Shown: positions 6,001 to 51,900 of the stretch, piece by piece
Layout of the letters: each line of letters begins with the position of its first letter
Position numbering within the stretch: the first letter of the stretch is position 1
Position numbers and translations under genes: made by a program
The notes under the pieces: generated by a model
Database searches by the model: none
Told to the model about the DNA's origin: nothing
Seen by the model: only the letters and a program-made list of their open reading frames with translations
Assembly (NCBI GenBank): GCA_003116995.1
Contig: BDSL01000003.1
Location: 248,001-312,000, forward strand
Direction: 5' to 3'
Length of the DNA: 64,000 nt
From: Yamagishiella unicocca
Lineage: Eukaryota > Chlorophyta > Chlorophyceae > Chlamydomonadales > Volvocaceae

Positions 6001-8972
6001 TGGAGCAGCCTGCGTGGGGTGGCGAGATAGATGACCGGGAGGGGGAGTATTGCGGATCCAGTAGCTTGGCTGCATCTTGCATGTGATATTCGAAATCGGT
6101 TCCTGCTACTACCAAATTGCTGCAGATTGGCATGTCTGAGAAGCGGCAGTTAAGAGGGACATCCACGCTGCTCCTGACCGTCATCAGCCGACACCCCTGC
6201 CTGCCAGCCCCCATACACCCCTGTGCTGGGGGAATAACGAAGCCCGCCAATGCACTCACTGTACTCGGGAAAAAGCGTCAGATGGAGGTGCGGTTTCACA
6301 GGTCCCATGTAGTTGCAGGAAATCCCCAACTGAAGGGTGTCAGGGTACAATATTTGGGCGGATGGCGGGTTATCGCAGGGCAGCAGGTGGTTCGCGACCG
6401 GTAGAACTGCGGATAGTTAGGCAGGATCAGAGCCACGCCATGTACGCACAATCAGAAAGCACTAGCGCCAACGGATGCTGCAGAGCGTACGCTGCTGGTG
6501 CCAGCGCCGCCAAGCCGTGTCATGCCCGATCCCTGCCACCGAGCCAGGACCCGGCCAGGACCCCGAGCGGATTCCGCCGTCAGGCCAGGACGCCGACCGG
6601 TTTCCGCCATCAGGCCAGGACCCCGAGCAGTCTCCGCCGTCAGGCCAGGACCCCGAGCGGTTTCCACCGTCAGGCCAGGACCCCGAGCGGTTTCCGCCGT
6701 CAGGCCAGGACCCCGAGCGGTTTCCGCCGTCAGGCCAGGACCCCGAGCGGTTTCCGCCGTCAGGCCAGGACCCCGAGCGGTTTCCGCCGTCAGGCCAGGA
6801 CCCCGAGTGCATACTCTGCTACGGGCTTTGGCGTTTTGCCATTAAGTGGCGTTTCAGTTTTTATGTCCTGTTACCGGGCGCACATACAGAGACAGTCAAT
6901 AACGTGCACACTGTTTACACATGCTTCATTGCCCATGCAGTGCTCGTAGTTCAGCGGTAATTGACACCCAGAGCACCTGCCCCATCTTCGCCACGTCCCC
7001 TCAGCGAGCGCACCTGGAGGAAGTTCAGACTGGTGATGTCGAAGACCTGCAAGAAGACGTACGAGAAGCCGCGCACGACCTGGAGGGGGAAGACGCGGGG
7101 CTTGCTCTGCTGGTGAGGGTCATCACACCGTCTACCGTGCCTCCCCATGCGTATGTCGGCGTGCTAAGCCAATCGGTGGCGGGGTGGCTAGATGGGCATC
7201 GAGCGGCGTGGCGACGGGAACGGTGGAGGGCTGGGGCCATCGCCCGATGAACGCCCAGCGCGCAATCGCAGGCGATGCTTACTAAGCGTCGCAGGCGGCG
7301 CTGGTAAGGCAGCAGCGGGCGAGCCTTGCGCGACCAGTCCTACCACCTTCATTTCTTTGAACACAAACAAGCGACCCCGCCTAACGTATACATCCCTGCA
7401 TGCTAATACCGGTAATGACGCACGCGGTACGACGACGTGTCCCCCCTTCCCCTGATCCCCTCGTCCCACGTCGAGTAACTGGTTCGTTTTTGGAACCCCC
7501 TTCCCCGCATCTGCCTGCCCAGAGCATGCACCCAAGACCCCCATCCAACGGTGCCACTTACCTTGATAGGCCAGACGTAGTCGAACTTTTGCTCCTTGAA
7601 GCTCCAAGCCACCCAGACGCACAACCCTAGGTTGGCGGCCAGCAGTCCCGCTATGCTGTACAGAACAGCCACATACCAGGTATAACCCTGCAGCGACGCG
7701 GCCCAACGCGCGGCCAACCTTAAATCTCCCGCACCAGCGTCGTCATCAGCCACGCTTCGGCAAGTGGCGAGAAGTGTATGCCTTCACCGTTATGATTACT
7801 TACTGCACAGCGCCAACGTTGCTCGGGTTCCCCGTACTGTGCTTGAAACTCGCGCCATTGCTGGTTTACCTGGTTGCCCTGCCCTGCCCTCGTCGTATCC
7901 TGCCCTGCTGCATCCCGATAGTCCTGCCCCAGCTTCTACCCCACAGTGCGCGAACTACACCCTGAGTCCTGGCCCAAACACCAGTACGTCTCGCGGTGCC
8001 TACCAGGGTGTTCAGCCATCCGAAGCTCAACACGGACACGCACTTCCAGACAGTGCTATCCGGGCTGATATCCCATCCCATCTCGGGATTCAAGATTGTG
8101 GTGTAAAGCTGCCATGCGTCCAGAAGAATCTGCGAGAAAGGAGCAACGGGAAAGGGTCACGTACGGGCAAGTTGACAGCAACCCGTCATCACCGACACCC
8201 TTCGACCCATTCCTCTTGTCCTGGGTTCGCCCAGGCTTGGGGCCGCTGTAACACTTTAACCTGCCTTGTCTTCCGATGGGGCACCATAAATATAGTGCTA
8301 CTGCCACCTCGTGGCGGCCCCGCCTGCCCAATAACCCTACTTCCCAGCCGCGAATCCCAACTCGCGCAGGGGATCGACCGCGGGTATCCTCACCTTGAGC
8401 AGAATCCAGTGATACAGAATATGCTGCTGGCTTTTCTCCTGGCTTAATGTGAAGAGAACCCCGAAAACGCCAGCTTCGAGAGAGGGCGTCTGCGGCGGCC
8501 GCAAGCGTCACACACCATGATATAATGGAGATATACAAGTGAACGCGAATGCAGGTGTAACCGTGTATAAATGCGGACAAATGGGGTGCTGACCGGTTTC
8601 GCCGTGAAAGCCGACTGACCATATGTACAATAAGTGTGCCGTACCTGTAGCAAGTCATCCTGCTCGTAAGCTGCGCTCGCTACCCCATCCCTGTTAAGCA
8701 AGGGAGTTGGCACGAGGAAACGGGAAAAGGACGCTAGGCAGTTGGCGGGCTACGAGACACAAAATGTCGTTCTTGTGGCAAAGGTACTGATGCCAACGCT
8801 GTATGCCTTCGTGGTGTAACATAGATAGCACTTAGCTTGCGCTCTCGGGGCGCGGACCAGCGTCTATTACCTAACATGTACCCCGCTCCAGATGCGGAAG
8901 TACTCACTTGAGGTTCAGGTTTTCTAGCCCATGGGCTACACCACTGCTAGCAACGGAGTCAGCGCGCTGCAT
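1..8972 (-). CDS. TmcB/TmcC-type multi-pass membrane protein with TPR-like region and PAS domains (3' end outside window)
   Basis: Likely a sensory membrane protein of the TmcB/TmcC-PAS family expanded in volvocine algae; ligand unknown. Twenty-two exons join in phase: 8972-8908, 8690-8645, 8489-8394, 8129-8004, 7687-7562, 7079-7014, 6329-6260, 6009-5915, 5786-5709, 5301-5200, 4847-4609, 4415-4265, 3890-3786, 3526-3405, 3066-2989, 2762-2684, 2267-2155, 1965-1895, 1618-1505, 1248-1063, 714-585, 417-280, giving 798 residues so far. About six hydrophobic segments lie at residues 116-356 (for example VAVLYSIAGLLAANLGLCVW and a Leu-rich stretch near 215). Residues 370-609 form the TmcB TPR-like part (FPDDAFVSLVYANFMLD, CRFMLFVRQQQATQKAA, VRLYARFLETIKQDPW). 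PAS 1 is at about 617-709 (GVVVVNAFGDIQVANK, GYNKGELDGKNV) and PAS 2 from about 720. The start ATG at 8972 gives MQRADSV. Positions 1-279 show no clear exon and are probably the next intron. Confidence 0.87.
6541..6809. repeat. 30-bp tandem repeat (about 9 copies) inside an intron
   Basis: Nine units of roughly CCAGGACCCCGAGCGGTTTC plus CGCCGTCAGG lie head to tail. The five rightmost are nearly identical and the left ones diverged. The array lies between exon 6 (ends 7014) and exon 7 (starts 6329) of the TmcB-like gene. It is open in several frames because the unit is 30 bases without a stop, which makes false ORFs on both strands. Confidence 0.93.
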
Positions 8973-11900
8973 TGCGATGGCCCTCTAGCACTCCCAAGCC
9001 GACCTCAGGGCTTTTCTCCCGAACAGGCACATGCATTTATAAGGATAATACTTGCTATATATACGTAGATCCTGTGTTTAAGTTCAAGTTTCCAATTAGT
9101 CTCGCTGTAGACGGTGTTGGCGACGTAGTGTCCAAAATGCACGACAAAATGGCGTTGCGGGTAATATTCCGGGTAACCGGCTAAACTCTCAGAAAATGTA
9201 GTTTGCAGTAAGTAGTAGCAATATATATAATTTGACGATCTGCAAACGCACAACAATTATGCACCCAGGCGGATCGATTACGGTAAGCGTCGATGCGTAC
9301 TGTCGCGCCATTCAAAGCAACAAGCGTAGCAGGTATCCAGGCACAGCGTTGAAGAAAATGGGGTATCCTAAAAATGTGCTTTCATACATTGCCCAGTAGC
9401 CATGGATATCAATTTAATACATACCCTCCATCGCCCCATGCGATGCTTTTTGCATCCCGCAACGGCATCAGACGGCGTGTTCTTTTATCATATTAAGTTT
9501 TGAATCAAATCCAGGGTGGGGGGTCAGTTGCCAGGGGGCTAGGTGGTCCAGTGTGGCTTAACCGCGTTGCTCAACAGCGTTGCATACAGGGCGTCTAGGA
9601 CATAACGCGACGTTGATCGCATCGTGGTAGACAGGGAAATAGGCACGGCGACGAACAGCAGAACATTGAAACCTAGGAATTTTTACGTCCTCGTCATATC
9701 GGTAGTGAGTTGGGGCTGGCAGTCCTCTGTCATAGAGTGTTGCACCGCTTATAATTTGCATACCGCGACACAATGGTAGATGAGCCCCGCCCTCTTTGGG
9801 TTCGAGCACGGTGAGGTCTTGGTATGGGTGTTGCTCTGACGCCCTTGCAACCGTCGAAGTTTGGACTTGCCCTAGCTTGCGGACGCTGTAGTCTCTTATT
9901 ATTGAGAGGTAAATGAGCCCGCAAGCCAACGTGACGCTATTTATTCATTGTACGGCCGCATTTGTACGGCCGCAATGGGTAATGCCCTAGTTTCTGTCCC
10001 CAGGCCGTCGATCCGGGCTGGTTTGCGGACACTGTTCCATCTTATACTATCGTAATCAACAGAAAGTGGTTGGCACGTCCGTGTGGGTTGTGACTGTTCA
10101 AGGTTCGTCCCCTTGCCACTTGCCGGCTCCCATTATTGGGAAGTCATTCGCCAAATTTATCATCCCTGTAATGAAACTCAATCGCCGCCGAATACCGGTA
10201 CCGGTAACCAACTTCATGTGTACGTTTGCCGGCATCCCGTAATCCATACCCTAAGACAATGAAACGCTGCCCTAACTTAATCGCAGTCTTACGACAATCT
10301 GTCGACGTGACGGAAACCATGCATAACTTCTTGGCTCTTGCTCACGGCTCCGCGACAGCCCCAGAGAGCGTGTAAGGTGTAACAAGGTGGAACTCGCGAT
10401 GACGGCGCGAGCCTTTCCGTTTTTAGGCCTTCAAACTATAGTCTTTCACTATTTCATAAGCATAATGATATGTTTGATGCGAGGTCGCATGGAGCTGCCG
10501 GCTTTCCGTCTCGGAGGTCATCTGGAGCCGTGATCCGTTGTCCTGCAGGTTTCCGATGATCCTCCATCGAATTTTTGCCAGTAATCCTTATTATTTCTTA
10601 TGTTAATATTTTATACGCACAATGAAAGGCGACCCCGGCGTTTTCGAGTTCGACGCGGCCATGTTCCTAAATGTCCGCACTATCCACCACTATGAACGAA
10701 CAGCATAGCGCCAGCATTTGATAAAGGCGATGATAGCTGTAGTATCGCGCTCGTGTGTTTGAAGATCCGTCAGTGTTACGGACCTTCATGTAAACTACTC
10801 CTTCTTGAGTAGGGATTGCTTCACAGGGCTCCATTTTGTAGCACCAGATCGCATGGAGGCGTGGGTGCGAGACAAGACGGTACAGGGGGCGGGTTCCGGT
10901 ACATGGTACCGTCGGACGAGGGCTTTGCGGGGAGCACGAATGATAGGGCGAGATTGGGTGACGCGGTAATTATGGAATAAAGCGTGTGATGCAGACGAGC
11001 CGACGAGCCGGAGCGATGCGATCCGTGCAACCCTAAAAATGCTCCCTGTTGGGATTGTAGCGCAGTAACGATTCCTGCAGTGTTTTTTGACGAGCATTAG
11101 TTTAGCCCCGGCCTTCACATGGTGAGGCAACGGCCACGGGCCTTCTTGTCCTGGGTTCGCCCGGCCTTGAGGCCACTATAATAGTATGGCACAGTCCTCG
11201 TCCTCAAGCCCGGGCGAACCCAGGACAAGAAGAGGGCCCCCTGACCATGGCCTCACCATATGCCAGCCGGGTCTGAACCGAACCGACGGCCGCAAGGACA
11301 CAGGAAAGCCTCATAAAGCACAGAGACGCCGGGCAAACCCAGGACACACGGGAGGGCCGGACCGAGACCGCGCCGTACGACAAGCCAGCTCCAGCACCTA
11401 AGGCATAGGGGGGAAAAACAGCACACCACGATTTCAGGGCCTTCCAATCTTCTCCCCGGCCTTTACCCTGGGTGATGCCTGCTGCATCTGAACAGAGGGT
11501 GGGCATCCACCCTGGATTAGTTTAGGCGTCGGTCACGGTGGCGTATTAGGATTAGCAACCTGCGTATTGGAAACCGCGCCCCGGCGTATTGGGGGGGCTT
11601 TGACGAATGCCCAACCTGGAAAGGACCCTCAACCTACCAGTACATTCATCCCACTGCCCATCCCACTGACGGATGATAGTCCAGAGCATGGGGCAAAACG
11701 ACAGGTCCTTTACAGAGCTGCCTTGGGCCCCGTTGGACCTTGCGGTGGCTCTGACCGCACTGCAATCTGTTGCTGAAGAGACTAGGGACCCCGGAAAATC
11801 ACTGTTCAGTCCTGACAGTATCCACGTTCAATCGCCCGACCCACAACGGTGTAGCTGCATGCAGCCATTGCAGCACCACTCGGAGCTGCAATTATTGGGC

Positions 11901-12408
11901 TGCGGGATCAGGGTGACAACAATCTCAGGCAGCTCGACTGCCCAAACGGAAACCCAACACCCGCATACGGTACCACGTCCACCAAAAAACCCAACAGAGG
12001 CATGTCAGCCCAAAACAAAGCGACGAGTGTAGGATGACAAGCTTACCAGGCTTTAAGAAACATTACCATGAGCATTACGGAACTTCACGCCTGCGGCCCG
12101 AAATACGATTATTCCCTGGGTCTGCCTGGTCCTTCCTCACTTGGTACGGAAACGAACGTCCTAACAGGATCTCCAACAATCTAGGTCTGCATCCACGCAA
12201 CCAGTTCCCCACTTGGCACCTCTTTCACGCGAATTTGAGGAAGCTCCTCCTAGTGTTCTTTGCTGGCAGAAGCCCGGTGTGATCGCCCGCTTGCCTATCT
12301 ATCGCCTTTTCCCCCTCCATGCACCTTGCGTGCGTGTTGCAGTCATCACCTCGCGGATGCCCGCCCAAAACCCACGTGTCCCTAAGGGCATACGAGCCTC
12401 TGTGTCAG
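8973..12408. other. Gene-free stretch upstream of the TmcB-like gene
   Basis: I find no exon set with coherent splicing or homology in this 3.4 kb. The part from about 9000 to 11100 is visibly more AT-rich than the gene regions. It should contain the promoter of the TmcB-like gene at its left end and the 3' UTR of the 12409-16923 gene at its right end. It also holds the inverted repeat at 11141-11232. Short ORFs here look random. Confidence 0.6.
11141..11232. repeat. Inverted repeat / potential hairpin with ~32-bp arms
   Basis: The left arm 11141-11172 begins CCTTCTTGTCCTGGGTTCGC. It is matched almost perfectly by the reverse complement of 11201-11232, which contains CGGGCGAACCCAGGACAAGA. 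A spacer of about 28 bases separates them. A related copy of the left arm lies at 8212-8252 inside intron 3 of the TmcB-like gene, and a weaker copy of the right arm near 11331-11360. This looks like a miniature or foldback element; no transposase is nearby. Confidence 0.8.
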
Positions 12409-15400
12409 TCACTTCGGGCCGAGGCCGCCATTCGGGTCCTCCATTTCCCCCGGACCTTGAGGTGGCGCCCCTCCGAACATGTGTTGCAAAGGCGGGAGTC
12501 CCAGCAAAGGCCCCAGGCTCAAGAGGGGAGCAAGAAGCATGTTCATCGACATGTCCTGGGCGCTGGGCCCCTGCTGCCCTGCGTGCGTGTGCCCCGGCGA
12601 CGCGCCCCCTGTATGTGACTGCCCCACTCCGCCTGGCTGCTGCTGCGGTGGTGACCCGTTGGCCGCTGCAGCCGCGTCTTCCTGGTACTTCAGCGCCTGC
12701 TGCTGGTGCTGGTACTGCAACTCCAGCTGGTGGTGCTGGAGGTGCTGTAGTTGCTGAGACTGCAGCTGCAGCAGCAGCTGATTAGCGCTGGCGGGGTTGG
12801 CTGCGTACTGCATGAGATGCTGTGAGGCCTGGATGTACTCCGCCGCCGCCGCCCCTAGCCCCAACGCTTGGAGCTGAAGTAGGCTATCGTGGGCGGCCGC
12901 TGCGGCGGCGGCCGCCGCCGCCATTGTCCCGTCACCCATGCCATCATCATGCTGTGAGTCGTTGGGCCCGCCGTGTGGCCCTGCCGCCGCCGCCGCGGCT
13001 GCTGCCGCCGCTGCCGCGGCGGCCGCGGCCGCCGCGGCGGCGTTGTCGTCCATGACGGCCCCTGCATGCGCTTGGTGGTGCTGGTGGTGTTGATGGTGAT
13101 GGTGCTGCTGTTGCTGCACAGCGTCAAGTTCGTCGTGCTGCCCCCCGTCGTCGTGACCGTCCATGTGCCCGCCGTGCCGGTGTACCATCTGGCTAGGGTC
13201 CACGCCATCCCCGTGGTGGCCATGGTGGTGGCCACCGTGCTCGTCCTTGCCGACCCCGCCTGCGCCCGAGCCGTCCTGCAAGTCTTCGCCCCCATACTCC
13301 TGCCGACCCACGCCGTCCTTACCGCCGAGCTGCCCATGCTGCAACCCGCTGTTGTGGTGCTGGCCGAGCCCCGGCATCCCAGCCATGTGCAGCTGGTGCG
13401 TGTGGTGATGATGCTGCATCTGCGCGAAATGCATCGCTGCTTCGCCCAGGGCACCAGCGGGGAGCCCGGAGGCACCGCCAAGGCCACTCGCCGCCGTCAA
13501 GGCCTCCAGCAGCCCGTGGCCATTCGCCAAGCCGGCCGCCGCCGCGGCAGCGGCAGCTGCGGCTGCTGCCGCAGCAGCCGCGCTGCCATGCTCCATATGC
13601 TGGTGCCCCGCCGCCGCCGCTGCGTCCATCTGCAAGTCGGTCATCCCGTCGGGTCCCATGAGGGAGTCCGACCCAGTCCGAGCCGGGCGCCCCGAATTAC
13701 GCTTGCCACCGCCACCTGCGGCCGCCACCGCCGCCGCGGCCGCCATGTTCGCGGCCATCTGGCTGGGGTCCGCCGCCATTGCAGCCGCCATTGCAGCGGC
13801 CATCTGCGGGTTGGAGGCCAGTGATGACAGCATCGCGGCGTCGTGCGCGCCCAGCGAAGGCGCTGCCGCCAACGACTGCTGCCCCATCGACTGGCCGAGG
13901 CCCATCTGCTGTTGGCCCATGCCCATCTGCTGCTGCTGGCCCATCCCCAGCGACTGCTGCTGACCCACCGTCATCGCCCCCTGGCCGACAGTCAGCGGCA
14001 GGACCATCCCCTGCGCCCCTGAAGCCGACATCCCATTCGCGCCCACCGCCGCCGCCACTGCCGCCGCCTCCGCGACCATTTGAGCAAAGGGCTGCCCCCC
14101 TTGCCCCAGAGCGCCCGCTTGCCCGGCTGCCGCTGCAGCCGCCAGCATCTGGCCCATCTGCTGCATGTTCATCTGACCCGCCGCCGCTGCGGCCGCTGCG
14201 GCGGCCGCAGCCGCTGCGTGGTGTTGGCCGTGGTGGCTGTGCTGCCCCGCAGATGCTCCTGAAGCAGGCCGGAACGGCCGGTTGCTGCGATGTCGCGGTG
14301 CCGTGTGCGGGTCCACGCCAACCTCCAGCGCGCCGGGTGGCAACATCGCCGCCCGCTGCGCCGCCGCGGAGCGCTTCTCCGCCGCCGAGCGCTTCTGCCC
14401 CATGCCAAGACAGCCCTCGCCGCCGGTTTCATCATCGTCGTCGTCATCGTCGTCGCCCAAGTCATCCATGGGTTGCATGGAGGCCCCGGGGCCCATCCCC
14501 ATTATAGCCATGCTGGCCGAACCGGTGGCGAGGTCAAACTTGAGACGGGCCTGCGCGGTTACGGTAGCGAGGACGAGCATACAACGCCGCGTGATGGCAT
14601 CCGTAGGTGAAGGGAACCAGCCAGCCGCTACCAGCAGGCACGCAAGGCCGAGCCTCAAGACCAGGGAAGCCGGAAAGGGCTGGTGGAGGACAGCAAGCCT
14701 GCCACGCGGTCGACGATCAACAATCCCGAAAATGTTTTGGCGGGAGGTGGCGGAGATCAAGGATCGCCGAAAGTAGCCCCAGGCCAAGCGCGTGCCCCCA
14801 AATACCTAACATCCTCTACACCATTCGTTCCCCAGCTGACCTTCCGCGTGGTGTGGTCCTGCGCCGCGTCGTATTTGTACACGAACAGCCCGTCCTTCTT
14901 GGTTCCCGTGTTGATGAAGCCGAAGCGGACGCGGCTGGTCAGGATGCGGCTGACCTGCGCAGTCGGTTGCGCAATGGGGACAGTCAGCGCGTGCGGCGGT
15001 GGCTCTGGCAGCGGTGGCGAATCCATGACACCGCTGACACCGCCAACAACTGGATCCCTCCATTAAGCCAGAGCCCTGCCAGTGCGTCTGCAATGGTGCG
15101 CCGCCAGCTCGCGTTCCTAACATCCCAGGTTCCCAGCACAACACAGAGGTCTGCTCAGGAACCCGCCCAGCTCACCTGCTTCTGCCAGCGCGTCAGGCGC
15201 CGACCGTCCGTTGTCTGCGGCCTCCGGTCCAGGTAGGGGCTGTAGTAGGGGTCATTCTCCATGGCCTCCCACACCTCCTTCACCGTCGCCTGCATGCGAA
15301 CACCCCATCACCGCCCGCAAATAGACCGTCAGCACAAGCAGAGGCGTACAAGTCGGTTGCCAGCCCGCACTGAAAGCCGGACAAGGAGTGGACATCGGCC

Positions 15401-16923
15401 GACACGTGCGCGTCTGCCCAGGGAAAGCGTTTGACTTATTCAGGTTCCTGTGCGGCACGCGGTCATCCAATCCACAGAAAGATCAATTGGGAGCCGCTCA
15501 CCGAGCAGTCCGGAAAGTTCTTGAGCACCTCCTTGACTTTGCGCACCAGCGGGTACGGATAATCAACCTGCCGAGATAACCGGGCGGCCAAAAGTTGAAA
15601 CGGTTTACCGTGTTCTGGTTCGTCCCTGCGTCATTCGACCAAGGACAGGACACGCCAGGGCAGCAGCCGCATACCGCAGTACACGGTCCCCGTGTCCTGA
15701 CGCTTCCGCCGAGGCCGGCAGCGGCATCACGCGTGTCGAGGCGAGCCGCCCGCCACAAGCGCGCCTTACCTTGGGCGCAATGCGCTCCTCGAAGGTCGCG
15801 CCGCTCTCCACAATCCGACGCATGGCACTGTACTTGTTCCGCAGCTTAAGCACCACCTTGTGCTGATCGGGAACGCCATCCCAACCTGCGGTCATGACGT
15901 ATGCGTCGCACAGACGAATGCACGTTGGAGGATTTCTGACGCGTCTCGGGGTAGCCTATCCGAGTTTAAGCGGATGGTGAGGTGCTCCACACAAACGGCA
16001 AATCACGTGGCCGAGGCACCACCCTAGGACTTGTACGGCGAGGCGTCCATTATGCTTTCTGACTCGATGCGGTGCTGTCAGCGTGTCGTACAAAGACATA
16101 AGACATCAACCACCCAACCCAACAGAAGGCATCAAACACCCAAATGATGACCGTGTCGGCAGGTCCGCAAACGCGTTGGCGGGTGCGGGCGGGCATGGTC
16201 CAGTCGTATCGTCAGTGTGAAGCGGCAGAACCCCCACGAGCAGAGCTCTACATGAGGGTGCTCACCGAGTGCCTTGATCAAGCCGGGGTAGTCGGGCTTT
16301 TTGTTCGTTGCCATGTTGCTCTTGACCGTCTCGAAGACTAGCTGCACCCGCTCGTCTGTCCATATGAGCCCCACACTTTCGTTTTCCGCCACCGTGTCCC
16401 TCCGGCGCCTCTTAGTGGTGGCCGCCTGCTCAGGCTGGCCTCCAAGGTCACCGCCGGGATGAGGCAACCCACCCGAATGATGATGCTGCGCTGCCGCAGC
16501 TGCCGCGGCCGCAGCTGCTGCAGCTGCCGCGGCCGCGGCCGCAGCAGAGTCCGCCGGAAGCTGACCGAGAGCATGCAGAGCGGCAAGCGGTTGCTGGTTC
16601 GCGAGCACCTCCAGCGCCTGCGCTTGAAGCGCACCCATAGCTGCTGCGTCTGCGTGTTCCTTTTGTTTGTTTGTCTTGCCGGCCTTGGCTTGCCGCGAGC
16701 CAGGACCCGAGGACGGGAGCACATCCGAGTCCAAGGCCACTCCAAGCTGCTGAGGCGCCAGCAAATGAGGGGGCAAACCAGGGTGCGTAGGGACGCCAGG
16801 TCCTGTCGACCCTGGGCCCGCGGCGCCGAGCACACCCGGGGCAAGAACAGAGGCCGCTGAAAGGAACAAGCCAGCCAGGTCCTGAAGGTCCGGCTGCCTA
16901 ACAACCTGCGCTGGCTGCGCCAT
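12409..16923 (-). CDS. Putative DNA-binding protein, paralogue A (SANT/trihelix-like N-terminal part, Ala/Gln/His-rich C-terminus)
   Basis: Family not recognised. Six exons join in phase: 16923-16266, 15885-15770, 15567-15502, 15289-15176, 14954-14841, 14550-12409, coding about 1069 residues. A helical W-rich block at about 190-258 (WTDERVQLVFETVKSN, KKPDYPGLIKALG, LKLRNKYSAMRRI) resembles Myb/SANT or trihelix DNA-binding folds. A second conserved block at about 259-356 (LVRKVKEVLKNFP, ATVKEVWEAMENDP, DRRPQTTDGR, RFGFINTGTKK) has a winged-helix feel. The 713-residue last exon is low complexity: an Asp run, several Ala tracts of 10-20, Met/Gln-rich GMGQQ repeats and His/Gln runs. N-terminal Ala tract and a KRRRR basic patch fit a nuclear protein. 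Function is inference. The next gene upstream is a paralogue with the same exon pattern. Confidence 0.78.
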
Positions 16924-17849
16924 CTTGCGGAATGGCAGCAACTTTCAACTGTATATTCCTATCTAAGACGGGAAAGTGTATTTTGGGACTGGCGCCGTGG
17001 CAAACGGAACGCCCGCAGGCGCCCGATGCCAGGCAGTGAGCGCCCTAAGGGCGTTGGGGCTGGTTGCGGCAGCGCGGTTGGGCTGGAGAGGCTTGGCCGT
17101 ATTCCCGCGCAGTTGGTTCTCAGAAGGGCCTCCCCAGGGGCCCTGTGGAGGGCCCAATAATGCAAAATTTGTACGGCGAAAAGGCGGCTCCTGTCCTCCT
17201 ACTGCAATCTAGGACGAACTGTATCACTTCAACGAAATGTCACTTTGCTCATGACCAGCTGGTATAGTTTTCGATGAGTAGATGGACTGGCCCATATTTT
17301 GGACGTGCTTGCGGTCTGATTGGCAAGGTCCTTGCAACGCAAAACTATACAAAGGAATGAAAACATCCTTCAATTGCATGATTATACCTGGAGGGTGAAC
17401 AATGGTGATATTGCCCATTGTGTCTGTAGCAGTTCGTCACCAAGTCAAGCCGCAGCAATCAGTTTGCTCCATTCGTTTTATTATGTCATGGTCATTTTGA
17501 CGAGTGGTGTGCTGCCTACCGTCGAGTTACATTTGAGATGTCCAGCATACCTCTAGGGTTCATCAATGTGCGCCCAAGTGCACGCAACGAAGAGTTCGGG
17601 ACTCTTGGGAATGTATTGACACGTAAAGCTGAATACAGCGGCAGCTTAGTGACGAAGGAGAGAAGACCTTTTGGCGGTTGGGGACATCCGCCAGTTGGGT
17701 ATCAACACCCCGAAATCGAAGAAACGAGTTTGCGAGCCACCCCAATAAAATACATACTCATACAACCATCAACTCAGAGCAGCCAGTTCACTGTCCGTTT
17801 GTGCACGGGGCTGGTCTAAAGTTTGAGCAAAACAGACGGCATCTACGCC
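16924..17849. other. Spacer between the tandem paralogues
   Basis: About 0.9 kb without a supported exon. It must hold the promoter of paralogue A and the 3' UTR of paralogue B. The only recognisable site is a TGTAA motif on the minus strand at 17527-17531. Confidence 0.5.
17527..17531 (-). promoter_or_regulatory. Possible TGTAA poly(A) signal of paralogue B
   Basis: TGTAA is the usual poly(A) signal in volvocine algae. This copy is about 320 bases after the stop codon of paralogue B on its strand. Position only; no transcript evidence. Confidence 0.4.
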
Positions 17850-20676
17850 TTAAACCCCCCGCACATTGCTTGGTGCAACCGCCGCCCCCTGCAGCGCAGC
17901 AGCCGCCACCTCTTGCTCCAACACCTCCCCCCCTTTCTCCAATGCTGCAAGCGCTGCCGCTGCGGCTGCCGCCATTGCCGAAGCACCAGAAATGCCACAG
18001 GGCTTCACCGTGCAAGGTTTGCGGCGCTGTTGAGGCGGATTCCGCCGAGTTGGCTGCTGTCCACGAGTGCCGTTGCGATGAAGCTGCGCCGATTGCATCA
18101 TTTGCAGCTGCCCCACCACCGTGCCGTCATCTGTTAGGCGTCCTCCGGGATATGCGGCTGCCCGGCGCGAAGTGCCATCATTGCCAGCAGCACACAATGA
18201 TGTTGTTGTTTGTAATTGCACGGCAGCATCCGGCACGGGTCTTTGCGGTTCACCGGTGTTACCGCCAGATCGCTGTGCCGCAGCCGCAGACGATGGACTC
18301 GCACCAGATGTTGCCACTGTTGAAGGGCCCGCGGCGCCTTCACAAGCATCGGCTTGGGTTGCGCTGGTGCCTGCTCTTGCTGCCGCCGCGGCCGTCACTG
18401 CCGCCGCCGGCGCTGCCTGACCCCGGACGCCTTCCGCAGGCGCCGTGGCGGGCATGGCAGTCTGCAAAAAGGGTTGATTTTTTAATGATCGGGCAAAAGC
18501 TGATTGATTGCATAGAAGCGTCTGCCAGCCGCCCTCCAGCCACCCGCCCTGGCTTACGGGGATGCCCATAACATTAAAACCCCCTGCGGCCCTAGGGCAG
18601 ATCATTTTGATTTCAGAAAGTTCCGCTCACCTCGAATGATCGCATGTCCATGTCCGGGTCATATTTATACAAGTAAAGCCCGTTCCTTTTGTTGCCAGTG
18701 TTGTAGAAGCCGAAGCTCATGCGGCTGGTTAGGACACGGCCCACCTGTGATGCCGAGGCAAAGGCGGCGTGCGGCAGGTGCTAGTTAGTCCATCTGGGTT
18801 ACGGAAGCCCCTCCTCTTAAGCAGCGCTCCCCATCGCGCTCTATTGCCTCGTTTAACCCCCACAATGCAACGCACGTGTTCACGTTGCCGGTTGATGGTG
18901 CTGAGCGGCCGCAGCGTCTACCCGCAACACAGGTGCAACCGGTAGGCCCACGCAAAGCGGTTGCTGGTTCACATCTCTCAGTTCGCACCTGCTTCTGCCA
19001 CCGCAGCAAGCGGGCGCCGTCCGTTGTCTGTGGCCGTCGATCCAGGTACGGGCCGTATGCCGGGTCCGCCTCGATGGCGTCCCACACCTCCTTCACGGTC
19101 GCCTGCAACGTCGGCGGAAGGCATTGGCATTATGAGATGTGGTTTATCGCACGAGACCTTAGCGCCAAGGGCAAGGACTAGGGCAAGGACTAGGGGCGAT
19201 GTGGACTATGCTCCAGTACCGGACGCAACCCCAGTCGGGGAGGATGCCTCCACCCCGCATGATGCCTCCACCCCGCATGATGCATCCATCAACGCCCACG
19301 CACACACTCCTCTTCACTCTACCCTATCGCACACTAACATGGCCAACACGTGTGCTTATCAGTATCCTACGGTACGTGCAAGCCAAGCAGCGACGCAGAG
19401 CCCCTTGCACGAACAGCTATTCATCGCGCCCACCCACGTACCTCGCCAGATGGGAAGTTATGGAGCGCCTCCCGCACTTTGCGCACAAGCGGGTACGGGT
19501 ACTTGACCTGTGTGGGAAAGTGGACAAATTAGCGTCAAGCGGAACATGGCGCCGCACGAAACATGAGCACGGCCCTGGTGCACCCCCGTCGCCGGTGTTA
19601 TCCTAAGCGTCACGTCCTGTCCAACGAGCATCGCTTACTTGGACATTGCGAATTCACTGAGTGGCCTCCTGAACTGCCCTGCTGACAGCCAGCATGCGAT
19701 ATTGACCGGCATTGGAAAGGAAAACCGACCGGCATGTGCTTGTGCTAAATGGCTGGAGAACATATCCCCCGAGCCCTGCCTTCGCCCTCCCAGCGTACCC
19801 GAACCATAACGCGGTCCTGCAGCTTCACGCCGCTCTCGACGATCCGCCGCATGGCGCAGTACTTGTTGCGCAGTTTGGCGAGGACCTTGGGCTGGTCTGG
19901 GTGCGTGTGCCAGCCTGTCCGGTGGGAGGAGCAGTAGCCGAGGATGGCCGGTAGCGTGGTTCTAATGCAAGGAGTGTAGCTGCAAGTGAAGGCCAGAAAC
20001 CCACAGTTCTTGGCTTACCTACACGCCTCAGGATCAGGTTGTAATCAGGTTTCTGCCCGGCCTCTAAGTTGGCTTTCACCGTGTCGTACAGAAAGGACAA
20101 GCCTGCGTCGTTCCAAGACAGGTCCGCAACCGGCTTGACAGGTGCAGGGGCGGCACTGCCCCCAGCGGCTGTGCTCCCCCCTCCTCCCGTGGGGGCAGCC
20201 GGTGGAGGTTGCGCGAGCCTTCTCCGCTTGCGTTCTCTTGGGTTGTTGAGCGCCCCGGCGTCAGGGGCCCCACCGTCAAGAGCTACGCCAGCAGCGGAGG
20301 GGCCAGCCCCAGTGTTGGCGCAGCTGGCTGCAGTGGCAACTGAATGTGTGGGTACCACACCCTGGATGGCTGTGCGACCGGACAGGACTGCAGCGCCTGA
20401 CGACTGTTCGGAAGGCAGCACTTCTGGAACTCGAAGTTGGTCCTGTTCCACTTGCTGGGATGTATGGCGCAGTGGCGACCGCCGGCTCGCGTGCAGGACG
20501 CCATCCAGATGCGTCATGCAACAGACGACAGCCTCGCGGATAGCCTTGCGGTGCGTACGGGAGTTTGACACTATCATATCGCCTAGCGTTTCCACAGAAC
20601 CTTTGGGGCGTGCAATTTCCTCGGGAACCGAATGGGCGGTCCGCGACCCCAGCAGCGGGTCCAACGGGTCGGCCAT
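17850..20676 (-). CDS. Putative DNA-binding protein, paralogue B
   Basis: Tandem paralogue of the 12409-16923 gene. Six exons: 20676-20019, 19914-19799, 19507-19442, 19102-18989, 18744-18631, 18461-17850, coding about 559 residues. The first five exons have the same lengths as in paralogue A (658, 116, 66, 114, 114 bases) and the same phases. Conserved blocks are WNDAGLSFLYDTVKANLEA, KPDYNLILRRVG, LAKLRNKYCAMRRIVESGV, YPYPLVRKVREALHNFP, ATVKEVWDAIEADPAYGPYL, DRRPQTTDGARLLRWQKQ and SFGFYNTGNKRNGLYLYKY. A basic RERKRRR patch precedes the first block. The last exon is only 203 residues, Ala-rich, against 713 in A. The family is unrecognised; DNA binding is inferred from the SANT/Myb-like helical block and basic patches. 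Confidence 0.82.
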
Positions 20677-22718
20677 ATCCGACGCGGAGCTGGCTAGAAG
20701 TTCGCCGCAGTTATAATACCGCTAATGGGGTTCTCATAGAACCTTGTCAACCATATTGCTGACACAACTTGCTACTTCAGCAATGGAATACCGGTAGGCG
20801 CAGTTAAAGCCGCATCAACTTATTAAGGTTGGCTTATGATAACCTGAAGTCCTCCAAATATAGGCGTATTGTTTAGTTTGTGCGCATCAGATGCACAGTT
20901 GCACCTGCTGGATAGCACCGAAACCGCCCAGGGCGTCCTCCTTTGGCTTGGACTGTAGCTGGAGAGGCTTCATAGGAGCATTTAATTTTCCTCCAGTATA
21001 AGAAACTGGAGTGCCGTGAGCAGCTATGTACTCGCAGTCGATGGTTGCGTGTCGTAACGGCCGCGACTGCCCGAAACGGCCTGTCTTAAGGCTGACCCCT
21101 GTCTCGCTTTCTTGTTGTTGACTGCATGTAAAATGGAAGCCCAAGCCGCACCTAGGGCACGTGCTCAACCGCATGAACCGCCGCTGCGGAAATACTCAAC
21201 CCTGCCCCCCAAATGCGGCTCCTGGCTTAGTTTATGTTCAATGAAGGAACATCAAAACGGCCTCGTGATTATTCGCGCCGCCTGGGAGCAACACCCGGAT
21301 TATGAATCTTACCCGAATCCATGCATTCACGTACACGCACTCCAGCCTAGGTTCCTTCTGCATCAACTTGACATGGCGTCACCCGGTGCATGATGCCCCA
21401 GACGGAACGAGTCTGCCGAGCAGGGTGCACCTCCTTTTATTCGCTTAGCTGTTGAGCAGCAACTCGGAAACGGGAGGACGATTGCGAAGACATTGTCACC
21501 AGGAGCGTCCTGTGGCTTCTCCCAAGCGTTCCTTCTTCCCGTTCACCCGATAACCTCCGCCGTTTGGGGACGCGAATAATAAATGGCTTGCACGCAGCTA
21601 CGCAATCCCGCCAAGCTGCCGCGCATACGTACGCAATGGCCAGTGATCTACACACGTGACAAGCCCACTGTAGCCCTCTGTAGCCCTCTACAGCATGGAT
21701 TGCCGGTGCGACAATCGCCCAAATTCAACACATGCCCAAGATCCCGCCAGGGCCGCCACACCCTGCCTTATTGAAGGCGGTCCCGCAATATGTTATTTAA
21801 AATGCCAGGCGCTACTCGTTTGGTTTTCCCGTTTGGCCTTCGTTGTTATCGGCCTGCCGCTCCCAAGCGTGCCGTGCCCTGCCATGCTGCGGTGCCCTAC
21901 ACGTGGGTGCCTATCCATTGCGGTTATCGTTGCTGGCAACATGAGCTGCGCGTTTTTGTCCGTAGCGTGATTGGCTCGACCTGGAGTGCACGCAAAGCCA
22001 CGTGCCTACTGAGCTGCGACCTCTGGGCTGTCAACGGAAGTCACGGAGCGACTGTCAATGGAAGTCACAGAGCGAGTCTTCAGCAAACGGCATGAGCCGT
22101 ACCATAACCCGTAAATCAGGAAACAGCACGAGCAGTACCACCACCGGCCCTTACCGCTTTGGGGGAAGTCATCGTTAAAAGGCGTACCAACGGAGTACCG
22201 TGCCTGTCCCTACTCCTATCGGACTGCTGGTCTGCGCCTGTAAACCGCAAGCGACGGTTTGCAAATTTGCAGCTCACGCTGACATGATACGTATACACGT
22301 TAAGTGGATGCACGCCCACGTCAGCACACCCACACACATCAAATTCCGGTAGGCAGGCTGTCGGCCCTCCCGTCATCATAGTAAAAATTTCGGCCATCGC
22401 TCTCGCAGCGCGACAGCTGCATCGCCATGCACGGACCCATCTCCGCATGCCGACATGAGCATGTCGCTCGATGAAACATCTCTTATCATGGAAACATATT
22501 ACGAAGCCACAGCCTCAAAAAAAGGGAAAGATCAATGTGCACCACGATGTGTGCGTACTATGACTCGGAACAAAACGTCAAACTTGTTCACGTCTTCTAG
22601 ATAACTTATTCAGTTGCCGGGTTTCCCCCACGAATCGGCGGATCTGGCAACCACTAATGAGCATGCTGTGGCGAATCGCGCCTACGTACATAATACCTAC
22701 GTGCCGATAATAGTCGGA
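20677..22718. other. Gene-free stretch
   Basis: No coherent exon set seen. A near-perfect direct repeat of about 23 bases (GTCAACGGAAGTCACGGAGC, then GTCAATGGAAGTCACAGAGC) lies at 22029-22077. The left end should hold the promoter of paralogue B and the right end the 3' UTR of the C2 gene. Confidence 0.5.
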
Positions 22719-45950: not shown

Positions 45951-48900
45951 TCACATGAGACCGAAGCCCTCCGCGTTCTGCAGCGCCAGCTCTAAGCGCT
46001 CCTGTGCGGCGCGCGGGCAGCGGGCAGGCGGGAGATAGGGGGTGTGCTTGCGGCTGTGGATTGGTTGCTGCCGCACGCGGCCACGGTTGTGGAGGCCGTG
46101 ATACTGGTTCGGTGGTAGCTACGGTTACCGGTAACATAGTGCGAGTATGCACGACGAGGCGCCGCTGCTGGCGGCTGCCACCGATGCCAGCCTCAGTGCG
46201 CGGTCTGGACCCTTCCCCAGGATCGGCCTGGACCCCTCCCCCGGAGCCCGCTCCCCCGTCCGTACCTTGAGCACCTCCTTGCTGTTGTAGTGCGGCAGCA
46301 GCAGGTGGTTGAAGCAGGTGTGCGCGGAGGGCAGGCGGTCCGAGTGGGCGCCGGCTCGCGAGATGACGAAGGGCGGGTTCAGGTGGGCCAGGCCCTGGGG
46401 GATGAGGGGGGGCGGGCGCGGCTTGTTCAGGGGCGGTGCGGTGCGCTGTGTACTAGGAAGGCAGGGCGAGGAGGCGGCGCTTGGTGAGGAAGGGCGCAAG
46501 GAGGTTCAGGGATGCAATGAGGGGATGCAGTGAAGGGATGCCCTGAAGCGAGGGGATGCAATGGCGCACTGCGACTGAGTGTGGAGTCGCTTCTTTGAAA
46601 GAAGTTCTTTCCCTACTCAGGGCCCAACGCGGCGCCTCCTGACCCTCACCTGGCGCCAGGCCTCTCTCTTACCTCACCATCAACCCTAGCCTGGCCCCGC
46701 TCCACCTCACCATCAACCCTAGCCTGGCCCCGCTCTACCCGCCCCGCCTCACCCACCTTGATCGGCACTCGGTCCGACCCCGTCACAAAGAACAGCAGGC
46801 GCTTCTGGGAGAAGGGCACCAGCGAGTGCACCACCTCCCAGAACCACCGGACCGGCTGAGGCGGCAGGAGGGTGGCAGGAGGGCAGGGATGGCAGTCGGG
46901 CGGGGGTTGCGAGGGAAAGACGGCGGCGTCAAGGGATACACCCAGCGCAGGAGGGCCGCCAACGCGCATACACGGAGGGGGAGGGGGCCGGCGCCCGGCG
47001 GAAAGGCCTACCTCCGAGTCCTTGTCGTACCCATCGTCGTACTGTGTGGCGCCCTCCAGCTCCTCCAGCCGAAGCTGCCGGCTGCCGCATACCAGCAGCT
47101 CCAGCTCGGAGGCGGAGAACCAGCCCAGCGCGGCGCCGGAGCAGAGCCGCAGGAAGCCGCGCTGGAAGGGCGCGAACTGCAGCGAGATCGAGTCCTGGGG
47201 GCAGGAGGAGGAAGAGGAAGAGGAAGAGGAAGAGAAGGAGGCGGATTTATAAGAGGATCCGCGGATCCACGGCCGACAAACCGAGGGCGGCGAAGGTGGT
47301 GGTCCAGCGGAGCGGCGCGGCAAGGAGACGGAGCGGAGAAAGAGGGGGTGTGCGACCACAATTCGCTTCCTTTCCTTGGCATCCACATGTGGCGGTGATG
47401 CTGACGCATCACCTAGCACCGTCACACGCACCTGCAATAGGTGCTTGATGTAGAGGTCGACGTAGAGGCGGCGGTTGGCCGACGACACCGCCACCTCCCC
47501 GCCCCCCGGCACCAGGTCCACCTGCTCCACCTCACCGAACCCCATCTCCATGTCCACCTGCGCCACCACCACCAAGACCACCGCCAGCCAGTCAGGGAGC
47601 AGCAGATGGGGAGCAGAAGACAGGGAGCAGCAGACAGGGAGCAGCGCACAGTCAGGACGCGTGCTTGGGAAAGCGTTGGCTCAGGAGACGTGCATGGAAA
47701 TAATGTTGCCGGATAGGGCGGGGTAGGTATGCTCAAGGGGGCGGCCAGGATGCTGCGGTTGGAGTCCTCTTTGGAAGTCCTTGGTCAGGAGTCCTTGGGT
47801 TGGAGGTCCTTCGCTCGCCCAGCACCTCCGACCTTCTCGGACTCCACCGCCAGCCCCCTTGCAATCCCTCCCGCCGCGCCCCGCCCCGCCCCGCCGTCGG
47901 GCCCACCTGGAACACCAGACCCAAGTCCTCCACCGTCTCCGAGGCCATCTGGAGCAGCTTGGCCAAAGAGGAGGCCACCTCGGGGGCCAGCTCGCGGAGG
48001 TCCTGGCGGGGAAGGAGGGGGCAGGAGAGGAGACCCGTGGGTCGGCACGGGAGAGGTTTCGAGGAAGACCCGTGGATGCGAGAAACAACCGTGGCGCACG
48101 GGGGATTCGAGGGAGACCCGTGGATGCCCGAAAAAATCCGTTTAAAACAGAAGTTTTGAGATGCATGCTGGAGAACTGGGTTGGGGATACTAAAGCCGAA
48201 GGTCGTAATATGACCTTTGGCGGCTAAGCTATAGCGGCTACGGCGAGACGAAAGGAAGCGAGGACCCCGCGCGACGCGCAGGGGGGAGGGGGGCGGGCCG
48301 GACGTCGGGTGATGTGCGGAGGGGAGGGATGGCGGGGATTCGAGAAGATGCAGGTACGGTAAGTAGTACCCCACAAAACGTCCGCCTTTGGAATTGCTAT
48401 AACGACACCAGGCCCCACACCCCAGTCCGGGCCCCAACTTACCTCCAAGCCTAGAACCCCGCCGCCGCCGTCCCCCAAGCGGTGCGTCCCGACACCTCCC
48501 CAGCTGCCACCTAGAACGACGGCTGCGGCTCCAGATCCGGCCCCCGCCTGGCTCGGCGCTCCACCAGCCACACCGGGGCCGCCGACGGCCGCAGCGGCAG
48601 CGCCGCTGCCGGTACCGGTGCCTGCGCTGCCGGTCCCCAGGTCGATGGCCGCCGCCACCGCCGCCGCCGTGGCGCTGCCCTCGGCGGCGGCGGCGTCCGC
48701 CGGGCCACTCCCCACCGCCACGGTCGCGCCCATGAGCTTCTTGTAGAGCACGGGCGGAAACTGGAACTCCAGGATGTGGCTGTTGTAGATGGCCAGGCCT
48801 GCATGGAGGTTTTGCCCGGCCCGTGACGGCATAGGGTGACGCAGGCTAGGGAAAGAAGAACCGGCGGCGGCATACATTATCACGCGGGTCGTTCTCCGAT

Positions 48901-51900
48901 GACCTCCCCAGCTCGACCCAGCTTCTCACCTATGAGGATGCCCACCAGCTCGAACTCCAGCTCCATCTCCAGCCGGGAGGGGCGGAACCAGTGCAGGTGA
49001 GAGGTGGGGTCGGCCGTGAACATGCCGTAGTCCGGGTTGAAGAGCTGCCGTACCAGCAGCTGGAAGAACTCCTTGGCCACACCGCCCTCGTCCACGCCCT
49101 CCTCGCCGATGAACTTGACCTGCAAGCCAGGCAGGGCCAATGCAGTTGAGTGGTGGTGGGAGGCTAGGGGCCACACGCAAGACGCCACCAAGTGAACACG
49201 TGGTGCACTCACTCCGGGTGCTGCTTCGAGTCAATGAGGCTCGTGCGTGCACCGCGCTCGAAAGGCGGGGTGGGGATACAGGGGCGCAGAAAAAACATAG
49301 GTCACGCCGCCCCTCATCCCACCTTGAGTGGCTTCTTGAGCGAGTCCGTTTCCTTGGCGCGGTGGATCTGGATCAGCGTGTCTTGGACGAGGTAAGGCCC
49401 CCGCCGGACCCGCAGCACCAGGAAGGGACACACGTCCGGCATCAGCCCTGTCAGCGCGCTGCCGCCGCCGCCGAACAGACCGCGGAACAGAGCCGAGTGA
49501 AGCTCGTTGACCTGGGGGCCGGGGTGGAGGGGAGAGGGAGACACGGAGACCGGGGTGGAGGGGGGAAGGGAGACACGGAGGCCGGGGTGGGGGTTGGGGC
49601 GAGAGGGGCAGTCGGGCGACACGACGCGACCGACCTCGCAACCCCCCAAGGGCCCAAGGCATCCCCTTTCTCTACTATCCGGCGACCTCCGGCCCCATCC
49701 AACGGTCCTGAGCCTGCTGATGGCTCCGATCACGGCCACATACCGAGCGCTACCTTGTACCGCCCAAGGTAGGCCCCCACATCTCCATCCGCTGCTACCG
49801 CTGGCCCCACCTACCTGGCTCATCTGGTTCTCCATCTGCAGGATCCGCGCTTTGGACCCCGGATCGTACATGAATGGGAACTTGCAGAAGCAGAAGTCGT
49901 ACTTGTGGGGCTGTCGTTTGTCGCGGCAGGCAGCAAGCGCACGAGATTGGTCAGGAAGGCGGGAACGGAATCGAGGCAACATCACCAACAAGTCCCCATC
50001 ACGAGCTTCAGGTTCAAAGGGGCTGCCGCCACAACACAACACCGCCAGCACCCAGCCAAGTCGTGCGCAACCGGCTCAGCCCGCGTCCCCCTCGTGCCCC
50101 TTCGCCTGCCGCCCCGGCCCACCGCCCAGCACCCACATGCTTCCATTTCCGGAAGTCCTCCTTTACGTTGAAGTCCTCGTGGTTGATGGCGTCGTTGTAG
50201 AACGCCGCCGGCTCAAGCGGCCGCCACCCCGCCGCCGCAGTAGGGCCGCCGCCCGCACAACCCGGTCCTCCGCGCAGCGCCTGTATGGCTCCGAAACCCA
50301 GCGACGCGAAACCCAGTTCCACGCCACCGCCAGCGACCTGGCCCAGCAGCGTGCCGGCCGCCTCAGCCGCCGCTGCCGCGCGAAGCCCCGCCTCCTCATT
50401 CGCCTCGTGCAGCAGGGCCACCAGGCGGGTGGCATCCTCGACGCCGCGGGTTATGCTCTTGAATAACACGGGTAAGAAAGGGGGATGGCTTACAGCAGGC
50501 CGACTCCGGCGAGGGACGGGCGGTGGGGAGGGCTTGCAGCAGGCCGACTCCGGCGAGGGACCAGCAGTGGGGAGGGCTTGCAGCAGGCCTATTACGATCC
50601 GGGTACTGCCGGCGGGCTGATGATACCCGTCCCGTCCCCTCGGCCCCTCGAGCCCCGGCCCCCGCCTGCGGGGCCGCATCACGCGCAGCACGCACCTGCA
50701 TGCGGAACAGGGTGAGGCTGATGAAGGAGTGCAGCCGCGACAACAGCCTGCAAAGGTGCATGGGCAGGCAGGGCGGGCAGCGCGGTGCTCTGGTGTGAAA
50801 GGGACTCATCGGAAGAGACCAACCTCACCCGCCTCCCCCCTCACAGCGACTCCAGACCACTACATCCGGTTTTGCGCTCCTGGGTCGTTCCAAAGACACG
50901 ATTCTGTCCACCGCCGCGGGCGCCCTTCAGCTCCCCCTCCCACCCATAGCACCTCTTCTCCTCCGTCGACTCACCAGTCCTTCCATCTCCACCCATCCGG
51001 TTTTCCAGCGTGCAATTCCAAACGTGTGTACCAAACGCTGCCTAGTCGGTTTCATTTTTCAGTACCGACCCACTGGTTTCCCCGCATGCCCACCCACCTG
51101 CGCAGCTCGTCGGGCGGGTAGGTCACGAACAGCTCCGCCAGCGCCCTCCGCTGCTGCGACGAGAGGGCGGCGATGAAGGCCACCAGGGAGCCCAGCAGGC
51201 TGCTCCAGACACGGGTGCGGGCGGGGTTGCAAGCGGGTTATGGGGTTGCGTGGATACAACACGATGGATCCCGCCGGCGCCCAATCGTCCTTTGGGAACT
51301 ACCTCGTATTCAGCCTGGTAATCAGATCCAGTCAGACGAGGTATTACACCAGCCCGCCGAAGGGCCGGGCCCCCACTCACTCGTGATGCTCGCCCTTGTC
51401 CAGCAGGGGGTTGGCCAGCAGCACTCCCAGCTGCCGGGACAGGCTGGGGTTGACTGAGTGCGGCAGGTTGCTCAGCGCGGACAGCAGCCCCTCCACACCG
51501 GCAGCCAGTGCGCTGCCCAGCGCGGCGGAGGGGCCCAACGTGGACTCACCGCCGTCGGCGTTCGCCGTGGGTATGGACGCCACGCGGCAGCCAAGCACGC
51601 TGTCGTATAGCGCTGCAACTGCCGTGAAGTCGAGCGGGCAAACGGTAGGCGGGCTGGCGCTGGCGCTGGAGCCGGGCGTGGCGGTGGTGGTGGTGGTGGT
51701 GGCAGTGCCGGAGCTGGCGCTGGCACTGGTGCTGGCGGCTCCAGTGCTGGCGCTCGAGGGGTCGTTGGTTGCGCTTGTGGTTGTACGGGATCCCGGCGGC
51801 GGCACAGGTATTGCCATCTGGCAGGTGCCGTGCGGCCAGGCGAAGGGTAGGGCAATCGGATGGCGTTGTAAAGAGGGTTCTCCTACATGCTGAACCTTAA

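What the first reader, a model, noticed from the sequence alone, without database searches (positions are those of the whole stretch)
12409..20676. Tandem paralogues with equal exon lengths but divergent sequence: an unrecognised two-block protein family
Both genes have six exons, and the first five are 658, 116, 66, 114 and 114 bases in each, with identical phases. The conserved blocks align without gaps (exons 2-5), while exon 1 is mostly different low-complexity sequence and exon 6 is 2142 versus 612 bases. The first block looks SANT/trihelix-like; the second (TVKEVW..., RRPQTTDG, SR..FGF.NTG...GL..YKYD) matches no family I know. A local duplication followed by change of the activation-like tails would suit a lineage-specific transcription factor family.
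Basis: partly seen in the sequence, partly recalled or inferred. Interest (0 to 1): 0.8.

Follow-up and report, generated by a model that had tools for sequence, protein, structure and literature searches.

The report
Unrecognised two-domain volvocine nuclear protein family
Two neighbouring green-algal genes, and a third more distant copy elsewhere in the same genome, share a conserved two-part protein core that reaches the cut-off of no Pfam family; the core is predicted to be a pair of DNA- or chromatin-binding domains, so the genes are likely gene regulators, which remains untested.

Summary
Genes A (17850-20676, minus) and B (12409-16923, minus) have six exons each, the first five 658/116/66/114/114 nt with the same phases and GT..AG introns. 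Their cores (residues 186-351 in both) align without gaps at 60% identity, under purifying selection (dN 0.30, dS 1.12). The equal exon-1 length looks like coincidence: no residual similarity in register.

New here: (1) a third, divergent gene C on another contig carries both blocks and keeps two intron positions; (2) relatives occur in Astrephomene, Pleodorina and Gonium; (3) A's tail ends in a block conserved in all three relatives and missing from B; (4) block 2 reads best as a winged helix (weak Pfam matches below cut-off), block 1 as SANT/Myb-like (weaker still).

Best reading: a nuclear DNA- or chromatin-binding family with a SANT-like plus winged-helix core and fast-changing tails, likely transcription regulators. 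The A/B duplication leans older than the split from Pleodorina, with weak tree support. Two paper searches found nothing on it. Function untested. Interesting but modest.

The parts
20019..20676 (-). Gene A exon 1 (658 nt): start codon, low-complexity N-terminus, basic patch RKRRRL (20215-20232), start of block 1 (from 20121)
19799..19914 (-). Gene A exon 2 (116 nt): rest of block 1 (SANT/Myb-like, inferred)
19442..19507 (-). Gene A exon 3 (66 nt): YPYPLVRKVREALHNFP, inferred first helix of the winged helix; exactly these 22 residues are missing from the Gonium protein model
18989..19102 (-). Gene A exon 4 (114 nt): TVKEVWDAIEADP, RRPQTTDG, RWQKQ; inferred helix 2 and start of helix 3
18631..18744 (-). 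Gene A exon 5 (114 nt): end of inferred helix 3 and the inferred wing (FGFYNTGNKRNGLYLYKYD)
17850..18461 (-). Gene A exon 6 (612 nt): alanine-rich tail and stop codon
17865..17999 (-). Conserved C-terminal block of A (residues 511-555, AAAAAAALAALEKGGEVLEQEVAAAALQGA), present in the Astrephomene, Pleodorina and Gonium relatives, not found in B
16266..16923 (-). Gene B exon 1 (658 nt): start codon, low-complexity N-terminus, basic patch KRRRR (16399-16413), start of block 1 (from 16368)
15770..15885 (-). Gene B exon 2 (116 nt): rest of block 1
15502..15567 (-). Gene B exon 3 (66 nt): start of block 2
15176..15289 (-). Gene B exon 4 (114 nt): middle of block 2
14841..14954 (-). Gene B exon 5 (114 nt): end of block 2 (inferred wing)
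12409..14550 (-). Gene B exon 6 (2142 nt): long Ala/Gln/His/Gly-rich tail and stop codon; its acceptor is the least certain site of the model

Best explanation
A and B are tandem paralogues of a volvocine protein family without a Pfam model, whose shared core is predicted to be a SANT/Myb-like helical domain followed by a winged helix, so they likely work as nuclear DNA- or chromatin-binding regulators. Shown: the gene structures, the gapless 60% core, purifying selection, a third gene C with both blocks, relatives in three other volvocine genera, and basic patches upstream of block 1 in 4 of 6 members. Inferred: the fold of each block, nuclear location, DNA contact through the basic helix RWQKQVGRILTSR and the hairpin FGF.NTG.K.GL..YKYD, and a role of the low-complexity tails in recruiting partners. 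Model of action: blocks 1 and 2 together would dock the protein on DNA or chromatin; the tail would set the output, and the pair would have diverged mainly by tail replacement (A keeps the C-terminal block that its relatives share, B has a long Ala/Gln/His tail).
For: Exon structure, GT..AG sites and phases; dN/dS about 0.27 over 166 codons; relatives of A in Astrephomene, Pleodorina and Gonium, E 8e-66, 7e-64 and 2e-43; gene C found as collinear exon matches on contig C87, eight-exon model with GT..AG throughout, both blocks above shuffles against 5 members (block 1 z 6.2-11.5, block 2 z 16.8-20.9, 500 shuffles each); winged-helix leads: PF25793 NFRKB second winged helix with C, E 0.0017-0.0019 (0.0018, 1 of 6 members), DUF4777 with 2 of 5 members, best 0.021, against 10 shuffled block-2 decoys of which 1 gave any match, at 0.063; net positive charge of both blocks in all 6 members; helical moment 0.79 at LRWQKQVGRVL, the highest helical value of the scan, and 0.54-0.62 along exon 3; basic patches upstream of block 1 in A, B, P0001, P0002.
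Against: No Pfam match reaches its cut-off for any of the 6 members; NCBIfam gave none for the A and B cores. The NFRKB match covers at most 42 of 139 profile positions, reaches only the part before inferred helix 3, and is one of several Pfam scans made here, so it is suggestive only. The SANT call for block 1 rests on pattern and one E 0.11 match, at decoy level; in its expected last helix (KVLAKLRNKYC) the strand moment, 0.79, exceeds the helical one, 0.49. No solved structure matches convincingly by sequence; the best was ribosomal protein uL30 at E 0.004, which spans the block boundary and did not come up when the blocks were searched apart. The fold of DUF4777 is not known to me. The solved NFRKB winged-helix-like domain (another domain of that protein) does not bind DNA (PMC3439487, abstract and passages), so a winged helix need not mean DNA contact. 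Structure prediction could not be run. In P0003 and C no basic patch precedes block 1. Gene C's splice sites were chosen with the homology in view, and for its block 1 against P0003 the best of 500 shuffles equalled the score.
Confidence: 0.5

Rival explanations
1. The core is a protein-protein interaction module of a chromatin complex: block 2 is a non-DNA-binding winged helix like the solved one of the INO80 subunit NFRKB, and the proteins are accessory subunits, not sequence-specific transcription factors.
For: The lowest E-value of any Pfam match to a member is the NFRKB second winged helix; the paper on another NFRKB winged-helix-like domain reports no DNA binding (PMC3439487, abstract and passages).
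Against: The match is partial (at most 42 of 139 profile positions) and below cut-off (18.7-18.9 of 27 bits); the paper says that the third helix of that solved domain lacks basic residues, whereas the inferred third helix here is basic (RWQKQVGRILTSR).
Confidence: 0.25
2. The blocks form a single novel fold, not SANT plus winged helix, with a function outside DNA or chromatin.
For: No family match at cut-off and no convincing structure match; the two blocks occur together in all 6 known members.
Against: Weak matches to a winged-helix family lie below the decoy E-values; three helices then a hairpin is the pattern read in block 2; basic patches and net positive charge.
Confidence: 0.15
3. The genes derive from a mobile element (for example a Myb-like accessory protein of a DNA transposon) that was duplicated and domesticated.
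For: SANT/Myb-like domains are common in such accessory proteins (recalled, not tested); lineage restriction as far as searched.
Against: Only three copies were found in a 133 Mb genome (the tool calls its counts lower bounds); intron-rich genes with conserved intron positions; relatives in three genera; no long repeat flanks the pair in 11000-22500, where the one long direct repeat is exon 4 of the two genes; no transposase among the 18 distinct window reading frames scanned with Pfam.
Confidence: 0.07

Closest known systems
TRB / single-Myb-histone (SMH) proteins of streptophytes
   Same: Order of parts: N-terminal Myb-like domain, central H1/5-like domain, C-terminal coiled coil (PMC10167121, passages); gene A has block 1, block 2 and a conserved C-terminal block in that order.
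   Different: No linker-histone or Myb Pfam match at cut-off; the paper's passages place TRB origin in Klebsormidiophyceae of the Streptophyta; A and B have about 185 residues before block 1. Analogy of layout, not membership.
NFRKB (INO80 complex subunit), second winged-helix domain, PF25793
   Same: Lowest E-value of any Pfam match: gene C block 2, 0.0017-0.0019.
   Different: At most 42 of 139 profile positions, 18.7-18.9 bits against a cut-off of 27; 1 of 6 members matches; no other NFRKB part detected in C.
DUF4777 (PF16007)
   Same: Weak match at RLTRWQKQVSRILTSRVRFGFIN in B (0.089) and in 2 of 5 block-2 sequences (best 0.021).
   Different: 13.5 bits against a cut-off of 34.4, 23 residues only; function unknown.
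Trihelix / SANT / Myb_DNA-bind families
   Same: Invariant W5, KPDY and GW positions and a basic last segment in block 1; one of five members matches Myb_DNA-bind_5 at E 0.11.
   Different: No match at cut-off; E 0.11 is decoy level.

Membership tests
Myb/SANT superfamily (block 1) | Match to a curated Myb/SANT/trihelix profile at cut-off | tested here: not met
   1 of 5 members matches PF13873 at E 0.11, the others none; gene C block 1 none
Myb/SANT superfamily (block 1) | Three-helix helix-turn-helix fold with conserved aromatic core | tested here: inconclusive
   Invariant W5, Y29, W38, Y55 in the 5 members aligned fit; helical moment in the expected last helix does not (strand 0.79, helix 0.49); structure prediction unavailable
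Winged helix (block 2) | Match to a winged-helix profile | tested here: inconclusive
   PF25793 with 1 of 6 members at 0.0018, below its cut-off; of 10 decoys 1 gave a match, at 0.063. DUF4777 with 2 of 6 at best 0.021, fold unknown to me
Winged helix (block 2) | Helix-helix-helix-hairpin fold | not testable with these tools
TRB / SMH | Linker-histone H1/5-type domain and Myb-like domain | tested here: not met
   No linker-histone or Myb profile match at cut-off
NFRKB | PF25793 above cut-off, overall homology to NFRKB | tested here: not met
   18.7 of 27 bits in C only, no other NFRKB domain listed; family search of the whole genome gave no match, with intron-split exons as a limit
Sequence-specific transcription factor (function) | Nuclear location, DNA binding, effect on transcription | not testable with these tools
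   Only basic patches and charge seen

The most novel reading that the evidence does not exclude
A new two-domain class of DNA-binding regulators that arose in colonial volvocine algae: all members found lie in colonial genera (Astrephomene, Gonium, Pleodorina and this genome, probably Yamagishiella), so the family may have come in with multicellular life in this lineage and diversified by swapping its tails.
Probability: 0.12. Interest if true: 0.7.

Novelty: new variant of a known kind. Interest (0 to 1): 0.42.

Why it matters
Volvocine algae are a main model for how multicellularity arises, and the germ-soma regulator regA is thought to have come from tandem duplication of a transcription-factor gene (PMC8608804, abstract and passages). 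Counts of transcription factors made with Pfam would leave out a domain that Pfam does not recognise, so a small family of likely regulators, with a tandem pair and a distant third copy, could have been missed. The three gene models and the alignment make the question testable.

Tried and rejected
Equal exon-1 length as a sign of descent: rejected, no in-register similarity. A fourth copy: the weak hit on C25 (E 2.5) lacks the motifs when translated and was dropped. uL30 ribosomal similarity (E 0.004): dropped because it crosses the block boundary and did not recur in block-wise searches. PDB hits to CHMP3, bacterial effector ligases, viral polymerases and others: E 0.05 or worse, taken as chance. 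Relatives in viral contigs and in prokaryote genomes: none confirmed.

Recent duplication inside this genome's lineage: disfavoured only weakly. Of six trees tested, the two with A and B as sisters had AU p 0.058 and 0.014; the four others were not rejected (p 0.07-0.65). The split A+Pleodorina has 81.7/74 in the five-sequence tree but only 67.4/51 and 53.3/50 in the six-sequence trees, where the long branch of C joins B (84.2/65 and 89.7/71) (all).

Homologue search with B returned nothing, but this is a false negative of the word filter: P0002 lies in its length range and scores E 2.7e-48 against B when compared directly. Absence from Chlamydomonas and Volvox therefore rests on length- and word-limited searches; I did not check that their proteomes are in that database, so it is not proven. 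Rfam and tRNA searches of the window: nothing. The poly(A) signal TGTAA (recalled) lies 319 nt after A's stop and 695 nt after B's, none within 900 nt for C: no support either way.

Full report
What was checked. The window lies at G000:C3:248001-312000 of a 133,378,104-base genome in 1415 contigs. A Yamagishiella unicocca plus-strain assembly is described with 134,234,618 bp in 1461 contigs (PMC6123790, passages); the numbers are close but not equal, so the organism is inferred. Both genes are on the minus strand. rebuilt them: A exons 20676-20019, 19914-19799, 19507-19442, 19102-18989, 18744-18631, 18461-17850 (559 aa); B exons 16923-16266, 15885-15770, 15567-15502, 15289-15176, 14954-14841, 14550-12409 (1069 aa). 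All ten introns are GT..AG.

Is it more than chance. The cores align without gaps over 166 residues, 100 identical; exon 4 is the most alike (31 of 38), the block-1 part of exon 1 the least (11 of 34). Third codon positions change most (51/35/76) and NG86 gives dN 0.30, dS 1.12, so both copies have been kept as protein. Introns do not align any more. The equal exon-1 length is the one part of the observation that seems to carry no meaning: in register the two N-termini are no more alike than shuffles (421 of 2000 reach the score) and register 0 ranks 30 of 121 offsets.

Relatives. A search of 5.8 billion proteins with A's core (protein lengths 308-980) gave three proteins at E up to 1 among 344 candidates, all volvocine and all unnamed: Astrephomene gubernaculifera Agub_g6469, Pleodorina starrii PLESTF_001522000, Gonium pectorale GPECTOR_20g492. 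A second search with a consensus core (lengths about 420-1333, which leaves out the 312-residue Gonium protein) gave the other two again and nothing new. A search with B gave none, but direct comparison shows that it missed P0002 (E 2.7e-48), so absences are soft. The Gonium protein lacks exactly the 22 residues of exon 3, which suggests that the same intron positions exist there and that its model skips, or the gene lacks, that exon.

A third gene in the same genome. A weak match (E 0.345) on contig C87 carried the motif NTGVKRGGLAVYKYDPE. Around it, three collinear matches on one strand correspond to exons 2, 4 and 5 (E 0.02, 0.2 and 0.0001). An eight-exon model with GT..AG throughout gives a 333-aa protein (its start codon is uncertain and its splice sites were chosen with the homology in view). 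Its intron between G and W of block 1 (phase 1) and its intron before (G/A)TV of block 2 (phase 0) sit where those of A and B sit; its other introns do not. Both blocks are related to the five other members above shuffles: block 1 z 6.2-11.5, block 2 z 16.8-20.9; in one of the ten comparisons (block 1 against the Gonium protein) the best of 500 shuffles equalled the score. Whole-genome searches with B's core, the Gonium protein, A's block 2 and C itself found no further copy. So the two blocks look like an old unit that stays together.

The tails. The last 45 or so residues of A match the C-termini of the Astrephomene, Pleodorina and Gonium proteins (AAAAAAALAALE.GGEVLEQ..AAAAL.GA). B has no such block (best 1.6 bits; A, which is in the profile, 69). 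A's tail thus looks like the older form and B's long Ala/Gln/His-rich exon 6 like the change (inference). Gene C ends in a short basic tail (KRKRVPQSGQAVRKRSRSVQ). Trees of the core are weak: the five-sequence tree puts A with the Pleodorina protein rather than with B (81.7/74); adding C lowers this to 67.4/51 or 53.3/50. Of six trees tested, the two with A and B as sisters had AU p 0.058 and 0.014, the other four 0.07-0.65. The duplication therefore leans older than the split from Pleodorina, without proof.

What the blocks may be. No Pfam family reaches its cut-off and NCBIfam has no match for the two cores. Below cut-off, block 2 of gene C matches the second winged helix of NFRKB (E 0.0017-0.0019), and DUF4777 matches 2 of 5 block-2 sequences (best 0.021); of ten shuffled decoys one gave a match, at 0.063. 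Read as a winged helix, exon 3 gives helix 1, TVKEVWDAIEADP helix 2, RWQKQVGRILTSR helix 3 and FGF.NTG.K.GL..YKYD the wing; helical moments are high along exon 3 and highest at helix 3. Block 1 has the look of a SANT/Myb-like domain, but there is only one match, at E 0.11 (1 of 5 members), and in its expected last helix the strand moment exceeds the helical one. Structure prediction could not be run, so both folds stay inferences. Both blocks carry net positive charge in all six members, and basic patches lie upstream of block 1 in four of six.

Mechanism. The most likely reading is a nuclear DNA- or chromatin-binding core with changeable tails, working like Myb-plus-winged-helix proteins such as the plant TRB/SMH family, whose layout is Myb-like, H1/5-like, coiled coil (PMC10167121, passages). 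It is not filed as a member: no linker-histone or Myb profile matches at cut-off. A structural-subunit role is the chief rival, since the solved NFRKB winged-helix-like domain does not bind DNA (PMC3439487, abstract and passages).

Novelty. Two paper searches, one for 'volvocine', 'winged helix' and 'SANT' together and one for the three locus names, found no paper. The passages seen of the Astrephomene genome paper name three somatic putative transcription factors, none of them Agub_g6469 (PMC8608804). As far as searched, the family is undescribed, small and restricted to volvocine algae. I rate it a new variant of a known kind (two-domain DNA/chromatin-binding protein), of moderate interest until a function or a link to multicellularity is shown.

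Noticed in passing
L033:8235-9186 (G000:C87:250235-251186): Just downstream of gene C lies an EF-hand protein gene (Pfam EF-hand matches, E 1e-13) that reads like calcineurin B (name recalled).
   Followed up: partly
window 57928-59264, + strand: Exons of a guanylate-binding-protein GTPase gene (PF02263, E 3e-13 and 0.00025, the second just under its cut-off).
   Followed up: no
window 46649-48925, - strand: Exons of a HECT-type ubiquitin ligase gene (PF00632, E 3e-27, and a second frame at 0.004 below cut-off).
   Followed up: no
window 11142-11232: A near-perfect inverted repeat (31-nt arms, 97% complementary, 29 nt apart) about 1.2 kb beyond the end of gene B.
   Followed up: no
P0003 (Gonium GPECTOR_20g492): The public protein model lacks exactly the 22 residues of exon 3; probably a skipped exon in annotation, which would remove the first inferred helix of block 2.
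   Followed up: partly
window 6455-6841, - strand: Tandem peptide repeat (unit TARGPGLTAE) in an open frame.
   Followed up: no
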